Shown here in pieces: positions 33,775-38,791 of a stretch of DNA of 64,000 nucleotides. Numbering within the stretch: the first letter of the stretch is position 1; every line of letters starts with the position of its first letter. The position numbers were made by a program, and so were the translations under genes. The notes below the pieces were generated by a model that saw only the letters and a program-made list of their open reading frames with translations, was not told the origin of the DNA and made no database searches. The DNA comes from Bacteroidetes bacterium HGW-Bacteroidetes-10 (GTDB lineage: Bacteria; Bacteroidota; Bacteroidia; Bacteroidales; UBA932): positions 1-64,000 of the forward strand of contig PHDT01000016.1 of the NCBI GenBank assembly GCA_002842695.1, read 5' to 3'.

Positions 33775-36147
33775 TCAAATCACCCCCACCAGCTCTCCTA
33801 CCACCTGGTAGTTATCATCTTCTGGTAAAATGATTGGCTCGTAATCTGAATTCAGCGGCTTTAGGACAATTTTCTCATGAATCCACTCACCGGTGTCGTG
33901 ATCATAGGCCTTTTCGCTTGTGTATGTTTTGATCGTGAAATTTCCGCTGTGATCCCGGTCAAACAGGGAGTGATGCTGAACGAGGACAATTTTATTGTTT
34001 CTTGAACCAACAACATTTGCACGGAACACACAGAGACTCCCGTCGGCAATCCTTGGTTCCATTGACTTTCCGGAGGCCCTCACCACAAACATATTCTTGT
34101 TCAGCTTACCTAAGCCATCAGCCCTTACCCAGCCGGAAATATGCGCCTCCTCTCCTTCGCCGAACTTACCGCAGGCTGCTTTAATAGTGTAGAACGGCAG
34201 AAAATCAATATATTTTGCGCTGTCAATAACATCAGGCTCAATACGCGCTTTCAGGTCAACAATCTCTTCGGTGAGCGTCTTTTCTGCAGATAGTTCCATC
34301 TGCATTCTGAAATGTTCTGCAAGAGGTTTGTCACAGAAATATACCCAGCAACCCTTCATACCTCTTGTCATCAAGGTTCTGTAAGTATTTTTAATAATTC
34401 TGTCGGCTGTCTCGAGTGCCTCCTTTGGATTCTCTTTAAAGAGAGACCTAATCCCCTTAAGCGACTGGTCCATTTTTGACCTGCCATTAAAATCAGTTAC
34501 AATGTGTCCGTCCTCAAATCTGATATCTGGACCCACAACAACACCAATATAATCGAGTTCCAGACCCTGGCAAGTATGAATACATCCAATCTCACTGACA
34601 GAATCAGGAGCAATAATCCAGTTACTTCCGTCATTTTTCAGGTTCCACCGCATCTCAAAATTGAGTTCAGGAATTTTTACATCCATTGACTGCGGGTTAT
34701 TTGCACTCTCCCAGTCCCAGCAATATCCTGCAACCATTCGGGATTTATTGTTATGCTGATTCTTTTTCTCTATCTCCCGCCTTAGTTCATTTGGGTCATC
34801 AAATATCCTGAAGTCAAATGTATCTCCGGATAGTTTAATGTTTGCTGTATTCGCAATCTGAAGAGTGTTGTCCAGCCATGCTAGATAGCCATCGGAACCA
34901 TTACATCTGAACTGCGATTCTAGCTTGAGCATGGCAACCTGAGCACCCGACTTCTTTGCCAGATCTGCAATCTCTTTGCTGGTTCCAATATCCTTGATAT
35001 GCACCCGCTGGTCGTTATCAATAAAGAAAACAGAGAATTTTGAGGCATTAATAATTTCAACAATCTGGTTGTCACCCATATTTTGAAACAAGCCCGACTT
35101 CAAATTGAGTCTGTGAGCCTCATCCACAATCAATGCATCAAACAGACCCGGTTCACAATCAATAAAGCTTCCGGAGCCTCCAAAGAGGTTAGTAATGCTG
35201 CTGCTTTTTACTATCCCCCTAAGTTTTGTAGTATATACAGCCCGTGGAGCAGCATTCTTGGAAACATATTTTGCAACCATCCCCTCTTTCGTGAGATTTG
35301 CCAGAAGATTAATTGCCACGACGCTCTTTCCGGTACCGGGACCACCCTCTACAATCAGCACCTGCTTCTTGCCGTTCTTACTTGTCCGGGCCATTTTAAG
35401 AGCCGACTCAAAAACCAGTTTCTGGTCATCAATCATAATAAACTCGCTATTACCATAAAGCATTGAACCGATAGCATCAGCAAGCTGCTTTGATGGTCTT
35501 AGCTTACCATTCTCAATCCGGTACATTATGTCCCTCTTGTCACCAAACTTGACATATCTCTTAATGAAATCCCTAAGTTTAATTGCATCGGGCCTGAGAA
35601 ATACCGGAGCCTTATCAATATAATATTTGAAGAGATCATTTGTGATGACATTATCCGGAGAATAGTTGTGCAGATATGCACAGGGGATTATTTCAATATT
35701 CTCATCCTGAATGGTCTGATTATAATCAAGCAATGTAGAGGCATATGACCAGGCCTGATATGATGGATGGACTGTATCTGTATATCCATGCTGAAACCTA
35801 GTTCTTACGAGGTCCGGCATTGATGTCAGCTCTGCCTGACTCCACTGTTTTAGCTCCACAATAACTACCTTCTCCTTCCCCTCATTGTTAAGGCCGGAAA
35901 TAATAAAGTCGATTCTTTTTGAAGTAAGCGGAATCTGAAATTCGATTGATATCCCTGCATCGTGAGCGATTTCAGGATCTTCAAGAACATTCTTCATCCT
36001 GAGCATAGAGTTAGCCCACGACTGAATTTCATTTGGAGCCGCCTTTCTTCCCAGGTAGCTTTTAAATGCCTTTTCAATCTTAATCTCAATTTCGTTATTT
36101 ATAACGTCATTAAGGAAATCCTGCTTAACTGCCTGATAAACTATCAT
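33775..36147 (-). CDS. PD-(D/E)XK nuclease-like / DUF2075 helicase / S24 peptidase fusion
   Basis: 790 aa with three parts. Residues 1-200 carry a PD-(D/E)XK-like core: Asp80 in SKRIDFIISG, then Glu98 and Lys100 in VIVELKQW. Residues 255-610 are a DUF2075 SF1-like helicase: Walker A GGPGTGKS (268-275), Walker B VDEAH (341-345), HTCQGLELDYIGVV (524-537) and TLMTRGMKGCWVYF (591-604). Residues 650-790 are a LexA/UmuD-type S24 domain: possible cleavage site Cys659-Gly660 in TIKAACGKFGEG, catalytic Ser695 in ASGKSMEP, and Lys740 in FTIKTY. The Cys-to-Ser distance of 36 equals that of E. coli UmuD (Cys24-Ser60). It overlaps the upstream MazG-like gene by 4 bp. Probably a defence or DNA-damage effector; that role is inferred. 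Confidence 0.8.
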   Translation of the reverse strand: MIVYQAVKQDFLNDVINNEIEIKIEKAFKSYLGRKAAPNEIQSWANSMLRMKNVLEDPEIAHDAGISIEFQIPLTSKRIDFIISGLNNEGKEKVVIVELKQWSQAELTSMPDLVRTRFQHGYTDTVHPSYQAWSYASTLLDYNQTIQDENIEIIPCAYLHNYSPDNVITNDLFKYYIDKAPVFLRPDAIKLRDFIKRYVKFGDKRDIMYRIENGKLRPSKQLADAIGSMLYGNSEFIMIDDQKLVFESALKMARTSKNGKKQVLIVEGGPGTGKSVVAINLLANLTKEGMVAKYVSKNAAPRAVYTTKLRGIVKSSSITNLFGGSGSFIDCEPGLFDALIVDEAHRLNLKSGLFQNMGDNQIVEIINASKFSVFFIDNDQRVHIKDIGTSKEIADLAKKSGAQVAMLKLESQFRCNGSDGYLAWLDNTLQIANTANIKLSGDTFDFRIFDDPNELRREIEKKNQHNNKSRMVAGYCWDWESANNPQSMDVKIPELNFEMRWNLKNDGSNWIIAPDSVSEIGCIHTCQGLELDYIGVVVGPDIRFEDGHIVTDFNGRSKMDQSLKGIRSLFKENPKEALETADRIIKNTYRTLMTRGMKGCWVYFCDKPLAEHFRMQMELSAEKTLTEEIVDLKARIEPDVIDSAKYIDFLPFYTIKAACGKFGEGEEAHISGWVRADGLGKLNKNMFVVRASGKSMEPRIADGSLCVFRANVVGSRNNKIVLVQHHSLFDRDHSGNFTIKTYTSEKAYDHDTGEWIHEKIVLKPLNSDYEPIILPEDDNYQVVGELVGVI

Positions 36148-36485
36148 AACTCATTATATTTTTTTGCATTACCCTTGGCTTTATCAACAGGGTATTTTTG
36201 AGAATTATGATTTAATTTGTCTTCAATAATTTTCTGAACATCAAGGTCAAATTTATCTGCCAGCAGAAGAGCATAAATGAGAACATCAGCAAGCTCCTCC
36301 TTTAATCTCTCTGGATTTGCCTCATTCTCCTTTTTCCACAGAAATAATTCAAGCAACTCCCCCGCCTCAATATTCAACGCAATAGCTAAATCCTTGGGAT
36401 TATGGAACTGAGCCCAATCCCTCTCATCACGAAATTTGACGATTCTGGATATTATTTCATTTATCTGTGACATATAGCGAGACAT
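36144..36485 (-). CDS. MazG-like nucleotide pyrophosphohydrolase
   Basis: 113 aa all-alpha NTP pyrophosphatase of the MazG/dCTPase superfamily. EAGELLELFLWKKE supplies the first ExxE metal motif and LKEELADVLIYALLLAD the second (ExxxD). Hydrolyses (d)NTPs to (d)NMP and pyrophosphate. It overlaps the nuclease-helicase fusion gene by 4 bp (ATGA), so the two are translationally coupled; nucleotide depletion or clean-up alongside DNA processing is the natural inference. A start at Met5 is also possible. Confidence 0.85.
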   Translation of the reverse strand: MSRYMSQINEIISRIVKFRDERDWAQFHNPKDLAIALNIEAGELLELFLWKKENEANPERLKEELADVLIYALLLADKFDLDVQKIIEDKLNHNSQKYPVDKAKGNAKKYNEL

Positions 36486-36511
36486 TTTCTTGTTTCCACA
36501 AATGTACCTAA

Positions 36512-38791
<2,280 letters not shown>

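What the first reader, a model, noticed from the sequence alone, without database searches (positions are those of the whole stretch)
33775..36485. Nuclease-helicase with a UmuD-like self-cleavage module, coupled to a MazG-like pyrophosphohydrolase
Seen: one 790-residue protein joins a PD-(D/E)XK-like core (Asp80, Glu98, Lys100), a DUF2075 helicase with intact Walker motifs, and a C-terminal S24 domain. The S24 part has Cys659-Gly660, Ser695 and Lys740. Known: E. coli UmuD cleaves at Cys24-Gly25 using Ser60 and Lys97; the Cys-to-Ser distance is 36 in both. The upstream MazG-like gene overlaps by 4 bp. Inferred: RecA filaments or another damage signal trigger cleavage, freeing residues 1-659 as an active or relocated nuclease-helicase while nucleotide pools are trimmed. 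This would be a damage- or phage-triggered defence operon.
Basis: partly seen in the sequence, partly recalled or inferred. Interest (0 to 1): 0.82.

Follow-up and report, generated by a model that had tools for sequence, protein, structure and literature searches.

The report
Self-cutting switch on defence helicases
A bacterial DNA-cutting motor protein carries at its tail the same self-cutting switch that bacteria use to sense DNA damage, and that switch has been attached again and again to quite different anti-virus enzymes, which suggests a shared way of controlling them.

Summary
Window gene 33775-36147(-) encodes a PD-(D/E)XK nuclease, a Schlafen-group-3 (ex-DUF2075) helicase and a C-terminal S24 domain; a MazG-like gene overlaps it by 4 bp. 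The S24 module folds (AF2, pLDDT 90.8) like LexA/CI/UmuD. In 99 aligned modules P1 is Ala or Cys, P1' Gly/Thr/Ser, and Ser and Lys are kept; 30 of 30 loci fetched by a profile search without motif selection agree. The unexpected result is breadth: the same module ends GIY-YIG-Schlafen helicases, type I HsdR, type ISP, type III Res, SauUSI-like type IV and DruE-like proteins, and has changed architecture repeatedly. MazG follows the Schlafen helicases only. Cleavage, the RecA trigger and the direction are untested. Defence-island enrichment was not found, and the window shows only scattered single defence hits. Eight paper searches showed no report of this fusion in what I saw of them.

The parts
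33775..36147 (-). Nuclease-helicase-S24 protein, 790 aa
   Evidence: ORF; Pfam; AF2 model mean pLDDT 84.5
36144..36485 (-). MazG-like nucleotide pyrophosphohydrolase, 113 aa, overlapping the helicase gene by 4 bp
   Evidence: PF12643 E 7.2e-21; E40, E43, E46, E64, D67 invariant in 37 of 37 aligned partners, window included
35548..36147 (-). N-terminal PD-(D/E)XK-type nuclease region (residues 1-200; Asp80, Glu98, Lys100)
   Evidence: Residues 90% or more conserved in the 25-sequence alignment A2; no Pfam hit in this stretch at E <= 1, so the nuclease label rests on the motif
34330..35367 (-). Schlafen-group-3 (DUF2075) SF1 helicase domain, residues 261-606
   Evidence: PF09848; Foldseek top hits human SLFN11, RecBCD chain D, DSH9, Dna2
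34249..34293 (-). Predicted disordered linker, residues 619-633
   Evidence: pLDDT below 50; seven S24-less PD-type relatives end at 617-630 aa
33778..34206 (-). C-terminal S24 (LexA/UmuD-like) module, residues 648-790
   Evidence: PF00717; AF2 pLDDT 90.8 for residues 631-790; Foldseek hits LexA 1jhe, 8trg, CI 8gmu, UmuD 8gmt
34168..34173 (-). Predicted cleavage bond Cys659-Gly660
   Evidence: P1 Ala 91/Cys 8, P1' Gly 73/Thr 19/Ser 7 of 99
34063..34065 (-). Catalytic Ser695
   Evidence: 99 of 99 (80 of them selected by a pattern that contains it); 30 of 30 from the profile search
33928..33930 (-). Catalytic Lys740
   Evidence: 99 of 99; 30 of 30

Best explanation
The window encodes a MazG-like plus PD-(D/E)XK-Schlafen-helicase pair. 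Its motor protein carries a cleavable LexA/UmuD-type S24 module on a flexible linker. The module is a plug-in switch shared by many unrelated DNA-translocating restriction and defence enzymes. Most likely working: while DNA is intact the enzyme is whole and ready. When RecA filaments form, the module docks on RecA as LexA does and cuts its own chain at (Ala/Cys)-Gly. That removes the S24 (dimerising) domain and leaves a new C-terminus on the motor (often ...AA in relatives), which AAA+ proteases can pull on, so a dangerous nuclease-motor is switched off during host DNA repair: a built-in form of restriction alleviation. Shown: anatomy, conservation, predicted fold, repeated fusion. Inferred: self-cleavage, RecA as trigger, and inactivation as the outcome.
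For: S24 fold matches LexA, CI and UmuD, including RecA-bound structures; the best hit, 1jhe, is recalled to be a LexA mutant held in the cleavable form. Cleavage pair and dyad intact in 99 of 99 modules and in 30 of 30 loci fetched from a profile search (32 matches; the window and 7 loci already known among the 30). The module is on at least six architectures, most with an ATP-driven DNA motor. In the Schlafen family its presence needs 5 changes on the tree and one S24 clade is rejected (p-AU 8.7e-9); across architectures the module tree needs 19 label changes where 7 is the least: it behaves as an accessory part. Five S24-less relatives 53-58% identical keep the nuclease and helicase motifs. 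P2-P1 is Ala-Ala in 74 of 99, as in E. coli LexA (recalled). LexA-like proteins are reported to hold degrons next to their conserved residues (PMC5742171, abstract). HsdR is the target of ClpXP in restriction alleviation, with no degron found (PMC4231737, abstract and section 14). Own genome has matches for RecA, ClpX and ClpP.
Against: No cleavage data. The window's own subfamily has Cys at P1 (8 of 99 rows), so its fragment would end -AAC, not a ClpXP tag that I know of; 16 modules have Val at P2. In type ISP the same chain holds the methyltransferase, so removing it would cost protection as well, and two of the five ISP proteins (L068, L110) show no helicase domain in their own ORF. Type IV enzymes attack modified DNA (recalled), where unmodified host DNA is no danger. 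Cleavage of UmuD activates. In E. coli restriction alleviation is stated not to be an SOS function (PMC11109961, section title only). No CTAA-N5-TTAG motif, even with one mismatch, between the operon and the divergent gene. Defence-island enrichment not found.
Confidence: 0.42

Rival explanations
1. On-switch: S24 holds the nuclease-helicase inactive or tethered; damage- or phage-induced RecA filaments trigger cleavage and free residues 1-659 as an active effector, while the MazG-like partner trims nucleotide pools.
For: UmuD precedent (cleavage activates; PMC8565304, passage). S24-less relatives end just before the linker, so the freed 1-659 resembles a complete natural enzyme. The helicase is closest in fold to SLFN11, a damage-response protein (recalled). 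Hachiman, another nuclease-helicase, is reported to be activated by DNA damage (PMC12278908, abstract in listing).
Against: S24-less relatives work without any release step. HsdR, Res and DruE act within complexes with specificity or partner subunits (recalled) and need no such release. A switch that arms nucleases whenever the host's own DNA is damaged would be self-destructive unless suicide is intended.
Confidence: 0.27
2. The module is a cleavable sensor that does not depend on RecA: cleavage follows dimer contact, stalling of the motor, or a phage component such as SSB.
For: IrvR is a LexA-like protein reported to be an exception to RecA dependence (PMC7101444, abstract). Nhi, a nuclease-helicase whose profile weakly matches this helicase, is thought to respond to phage SSB (PMC12904381, passage). 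The window module has a longer Ser-Lys spacing than UmuD (45 here, 37 recalled).
Against: Closest folds are the RecA-dependent LexA, CI and UmuD. The module sits on very different motors, which argues for a common host signal.
Confidence: 0.18
3. The S24 module serves as a dimerisation or maturation domain; its chemistry is used once or not at all, without regulation.
For: S24 domains dimerise (recalled); the module is absent from close relatives.
Against: Retention of Ser, Lys and the small-residue cleavage pair across 99 divergent modules and in 30 of 30 loci of the profile search would not be needed for dimerisation alone.
Confidence: 0.1

Closest known systems
UmuD / LexA / lambda CI (peptidase S24 self-cleavage family)
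   Same: Fold, Ser-Lys dyad, Ala/Cys-Gly bond upstream of the Ser; Cys at P1 as in E. coli UmuD
   Different: Fused to the C-terminus of nuclease-motors, not to a DNA-binding domain or a short N-tail; longer loop between Ser and Lys; P1' Thr or Ser in 26 of 99
Restriction alleviation of EcoKI (ClpXP digestion of HsdR)
   Same: Same class of target (HsdR and other ATP-driven restriction motors) and the same need to spare host DNA
   Different: There the degron is unknown and no self-cleavage is described in what I read; here the switch is built into the protein and would respond to damage
Nhi / AbiO nuclease-helicases and PADLOC PDC-S41
   Same: Partial profile matches over helicase and N-terminal parts (34-66 bits)
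   Different: Matches are weak and partial; the best-matching stretches in the window protein lie within residues 4-418 and do not reach the S24 part
Type I HsdR, type III Res, type ISP, SauUSI-like type IV, DruE
   Same: Carry the same C-terminal S24 module in the relatives found here
   Different: Unrelated N-terminal architectures; no MazG-like gene found beside them
Human SLFN11 (Schlafen group 3)
   Same: Top Foldseek hit of the whole model (E 1.6e-10)
   Different: 10% identity, rmsd 15.2 over 591 columns; no S24 domain (recalled)

Membership tests
Peptidase S24 (LexA/UmuD/CI self-cleaving) | S24 fold | tested here: met
   PF00717 above cut-off; AF2 and Foldseek to LexA, CI and UmuD, E down to 8.8e-7
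Peptidase S24 (LexA/UmuD/CI self-cleaving) | Ser-Lys catalytic dyad | tested here: met
   Ser695 and Lys740 in the window; 99 of 99 and 30 of 30 aligned modules
Peptidase S24 (LexA/UmuD/CI self-cleaving) | Ala/Cys-Gly scissile bond about 35 residues before the Ser | tested here: met
   Cys659-Gly660 in the window; P1 Ala or Cys in 99 of 99, P1' Gly in 73 of 99 with Thr or Ser in the rest
Peptidase S24 (LexA/UmuD/CI self-cleaving) | RecA-stimulated self-cleavage | not testable with these tools
   Needs protein and RecA filaments; RecA and UmuD are in the genome
Schlafen group 3 (PF09848) helicase | Profile match and Walker motifs | tested here: met
   343.7 bits against cut-off 24; GGPGTGKS and DEAH motifs
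MazG-like pyrophosphohydrolase (PF12643) | Profile match and ExxE...ExxD acidic residues | tested here: met
   74.7 bits against cut-off 27; E40, E43, E64, D67 in 37 of 37
Known anti-phage system (PADLOC) | Full-length match to a catalogued defence protein | tested here: not met
   Only partial, weak hits for the window protein (PDC-S41 58.9 bits, AbiO 37.3, Nhi 34.9)
Known anti-phage system (PADLOC) | Defence-island neighbourhood | tested here: not met
   No enrichment against random regions in a small test; window with scattered single hits only. One S24-less plasmid copy lies beside a restriction system
Restriction alleviation | Loss of the motor subunit by proteolysis after DNA damage or on unmodified host DNA | not testable with these tools
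   Needs experiment

The most novel reading that the evidence does not exclude
Bacteria own a portable self-cleavage module, of the LexA/UmuD fold, that is attached to the C-terminus of type I, III, ISP and IV restriction enzymes, DruE-like helicases and Schlafen nuclease-helicases, and that lets one cellular signal (RecA on damaged DNA) switch many different immune motors by autoproteolysis. It would be a direct protein-level link between the SOS signal and immunity.
Probability: 0.5. Interest if true: 0.9.

Novelty: new variant of a known kind. Interest (0 to 1): 0.78.

Why it matters
How cells keep powerful DNA-cutting motors from attacking their own damaged chromosome is an open question; for EcoKI the signal on HsdR that ClpXP reads could not be found (PMC4231737, section 14). 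A self-cleaving LexA-type module on HsdR, Res, ISP, SauUSI-like, DruE-like and Schlafen enzymes would be a hard-wired answer, testable in one tube with RecA. It would also tie DNA-damage sensing to immunity without transcription, and give a marker (C-terminal S24 with Ala/Cys-Gly, Ser, Lys) for finding new regulated defence enzymes.

Tried and rejected
Considered and set aside. (1) S24 as a degenerate or decayed domain: rejected, active-site and cleavage residues are kept. (2) The fusion as an assembly error: rejected, five Bacteroidales relatives (L060-L064) have the same architecture at 61-67% identity. (3) MazG as part of the S24 mechanism: unlikely, MazG accompanies Schlafen helicases with or without S24 and was found beside none of the other 71 loci searched (blastp, E 1e-3; some loci end at contig edges). 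(4) Defence-island enrichment: tested, not found; the test counts families rather than genes, only the 25 commonest families were shown, and the random regions included hits to CBASS cyclases and a type I restriction enzyme. (5) SOS-box control: no CTAA-N5-TTAG, even with one mismatch, in 36486-36586, and fewer matches in the window than chance gives (14 against a shuffled mean of 27.7, all 100 shuffles having at least 14); the GGA-N5-TCC motif was read about but not scanned for. (6) A palindrome upstream of the operon was not found upstream of the 36 other MazG-like genes (three of those have other palindromes). (7) The first viral scan with the whole protein gave nothing; with the module, 2 loci. 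(8) Plasmids searched with the window's module gave 1 record; phages searched with L043's module gave 2 records, both HTH proteins at 25.9% identity; the window's own module was not run against phages. (9) No coordinates came with the models, so the Cys659-Ser695 distance was not measured. (10) That the module follows host phylum more than enzyme type: not borne out; on 67 rows with both labels architecture needs 10 changes (shuffled mean 30.4) and phylum 26 (shuffled mean 42.4).

Rows dropped: L049 (module cut by the contig end; Ser-Ile in place of Ser-Met), L058 and L059 (short UmuD/LexA-type proteins) were aligned but left out of the 99. Of the 99, 80 came through a scan whose pattern contains the Ser-Met, so Ser conservation in them is by selection; 2 viral rows came through patterns that include the Ser or the Lys. 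One search gave 32 matches, 30 of them fetched; the profile itself was built from modules that hold the residues. L056, a weak helicase match without a MazG hit, and L057 were not counted in the Schlafen set; L065 and L111 were left out of the tree. The control for one search used 93 of 138 random-region proteins, from 12 of 17 regions (one protein from the last), because of the residue limit. One search scanned 53 of 55 window ORFs of 120 aa or more. Seven of 99 rows have no assigned architecture; most assignments rest on clustering and BLAST/phmmer, with Pfam on 22 S24-bearing relatives. L039, L065, L093, L099, L103, L104, L106, L108, L118 and L127 are split by frameshifts or stops in the record, begin late or lack their front part, and L071, L090, L096, L098, L111, L112 and L122 run off a contig end; they were used as the pieces that read open and not mended.

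Novelty searches (PubMed Central open licences only). Searches returned no paper; two returned 5 and 1, seen as listing. Of the 100 papers, 40 were listed; five of those were opened (PMC8565304 and PMC13192584 as passages, the first also section 12; PMC4231737, PMC5742171 and PMC7101444 as abstracts, the first also section 14). None of what I saw describes S24 fused to restriction or defence motors; the unlisted 60 were not seen.
Full report
Observation. The gene at 33775-36147(-) is one open frame of 790 codons and the gene before it, 36144-36485(-), overlaps it by 4 bp. Pfam finds the Schlafen-group-3 helicase (formerly DUF2075) at 261-606 and Peptidase_S24 at 678-787 in the first, and MazG-like in the second. 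A search of the genome (2.41 Mb in 42 contigs, 93.5% complete) finds this copy only.

Fold. AlphaFold2 on the module with 62 relatives gave pLDDT 90.8. Foldseek against the PDB lists LexA 1jhe first (TM 0.82 on the target, 0.65 on the query), then LexA on a RecA filament (8trg); lambda CI on RecA (8gmu), UmuD' (1umu) and UmuD on RecA (8gmt) follow; signal peptidases come with E 0.02 or worse. The full-length model (pLDDT 84.5) has a poorly predicted linker at 619-633 between helicase and S24, and its top matches are SLFN11, RecBCD chain D, DSH9 and Dna2. No coordinates were available, so the geometry of the active site was not measured.

Relatives. A sample of 395 genomes of the phylum gave 33 with a match, mainly of three kinds: the same nuclease-helicase without S24 (five at 53-58% identity and 617-623 aa, two at 32-33%); GIY-YIG-Schlafen helicases with S24; and the S24 module alone at the end of much larger proteins. 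Of 99 modules aligned, P1 is Ala in 91 and Cys in 8; P1' is Gly in 73, Thr in 19, Ser in 7; the Phe two residues on, the Ser and the Lys are in 99. The Ser was part of the search pattern for 80 of these; the Lys and the cleavage pair were not. In a sample of 395 genomes of the class searched with a profile, 32 had the module, and the 30 fetched loci (the window and 7 already known among them) all keep P1 Ala/Cys, P1' Gly, Ser and Lys. Cys at P1 marks the window's own subfamily (the window and L060-L066).

Architectures. By clustering, phmmer, tblastn and Pfam on 22 S24-bearing relatives the 99 divide into PD-(D/E)XK-Schlafen 21, GIY-YIG-Schlafen 12, two HsdR types 12 and 24, DruE-like 12, type ISP 5, SauUSI-like (PLD, SF2 helicase, DUF3427) 5, type III Res 1, and 7 unassigned. 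PADLOC agrees on the representatives scanned: REase_I (123-127 bits), mREase_IV (743-815 bits), REase_MTase_IIG (1889 bits), REase_III (477 bits), DruE (358 bits). The name SauUSI is recalled. Two of the ISP proteins, L068 and L110, show no helicase domain in their own frame. Among 97 proteins near 24 of 26 chosen non-Schlafen loci (two gave no neighbour), 6 carry Methylase_S, 1 N6_Mtase and 2 N6_N4_Mtase, as expected for real restriction operons. Sixteen phyla are named among 73 rows with a phylum; MAG contamination is possible, for instance L102, a MAG contig titled Klebsiella pneumoniae.

Evolution. On the module tree (quick method; 22 of 95 inner branches starred, 42 open) the eight architecture labels need 19 changes where 7 is the least possible; shuffles average 57.6. 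Closely related modules sit on HsdR (L074, L077) and type ISP (L076, L080, L083) in one group (SH-aLRT 95 to 98). Within the PD-(D/E)XK-Schlafen family (26 rows), presence of S24 needs 5 changes, starred branches force 2, and a single S24 clade is rejected (p-AU 8.7e-9; long branches L078 and L037). So the module is gained and lost faster than its hosts diverge, as expected for a regulatory plug-in. Over 67 rows with both labels the modules follow architecture (10 changes, shuffled mean 30.4) more closely than phylum (26 changes, shuffled mean 42.4), which speaks against free exchange within a lineage as the rule; still, in Omnitrophota the variant Ala-Val-Ala/Thr is on both Schlafen (3) and HsdR (7) hosts, and it also occurs in a few rows elsewhere.

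The MazG partner. A MazG-like gene lies next to the helicase in 37 of 41 Schlafen-type loci including the window: directly upstream in 31, further upstream with a gene's length between in L036, directly downstream in five Halomonadaceae/Marichromatium loci. The four without are L037, L065, L067 and L111; L111 is cut by a contig end, and the contig of L065 ends about 1.2 kb upstream of its helicase. None of the other 71 loci searched has it. Its acidic residues are invariant in 37 of 37. It goes with the helicase, not with S24.

Defence context. The PADLOC scan of 93 neighbours of 17 Schlafen loci gave 37 families against 133 for 93 proteins from random regions of 12 of the same 17 genomes: no enrichment, in a small test that counts families. 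Of 53 window proteins scanned, single ones hit 12 families such as mad3, SoFic, DEDDh and pVip; no multi-gene system is seen. A Hymenobacter plasmid copy, S24-less by its length, lies beside a restriction endonuclease and DNA methyltransferase; on a 25-kb Marivirga plasmid a pyrophosphohydrolase stands directly before a helicase match that comes in four pieces. A defence role for the window pair is therefore an inference from its relatives.

Mechanism. Shown by sequence and model: a cleavable-type S24 module on a linker behind a complete nuclease-helicase. Inferred: RecA-triggered self-cleavage. The direction is open. Off: LexA and CI are inactivated by cleavage (recalled); LexA-like proteins hold degrons beside their conserved residues (PMC5742171, abstract); restriction motors are already known to be removed by ClpXP in restriction alleviation (PMC4231737 and PMC11109961, abstracts); the predicted new C-terminus is -AA in 74 of 99. 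On: UmuD, and the fact that 1-659 looks like a complete S24-less relative. Against off in the window itself: its Cys P1 gives -AAC. RecA, UmuD with a UmuC-like neighbour (recognised by eye), ClpX and ClpP are in the genome, and none of its three S24-profile matches looks like LexA; Bacteroidetes are reported to lack LexA (PMC8565304, section 12).

Verdict. The larger finding is that this module is a common attachment on DNA-translocating restriction and defence enzymes.

Noticed in passing
window 36518-36538: A perfect 10-bp inverted repeat with a 1-bp centre between the MazG-like gene and the divergent gene at 36587 (a katG by eye); looks like an operator, not found upstream of relatives.
   Followed up: partly
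L074, L076, L077, L080, L083: Closely related S24 modules on HsdR and on type ISP enzymes in MAGs: recent module exchange between restriction classes.
   Followed up: partly
L092 and L113: Short proteins (275 and 277 aa) ending in the same S24 module behind an unfamiliar N-terminal domain, in Acidobacteriota.
   Followed up: no
L073:3845-7480: A 1212-aa protein with the S24 module whose only Pfam hit at E 1e-4 is S24; only a weak type III Res match (36.6 bits) in PADLOC.
   Followed up: no
L097:1-3462: MrfA-type helicase fragment with a DUF559/MTES_1575-like nuclease stretch (917-980) before the S24 module.
   Followed up: no
Omnitrophota loci among L071-L124: The cleavage-site variant Ala-Val-Ala/Thr is shared by Schlafen and HsdR hosts of one phylum, though overall the modules follow architecture more than phylum.
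   Followed up: partly
L142 (own genome C24): UmuD-like gene followed by a UmuC-like one; its UmuD has Tyr-Ala/Gly at the cleavage site, unlike the Cys of the window protein.
   Followed up: no
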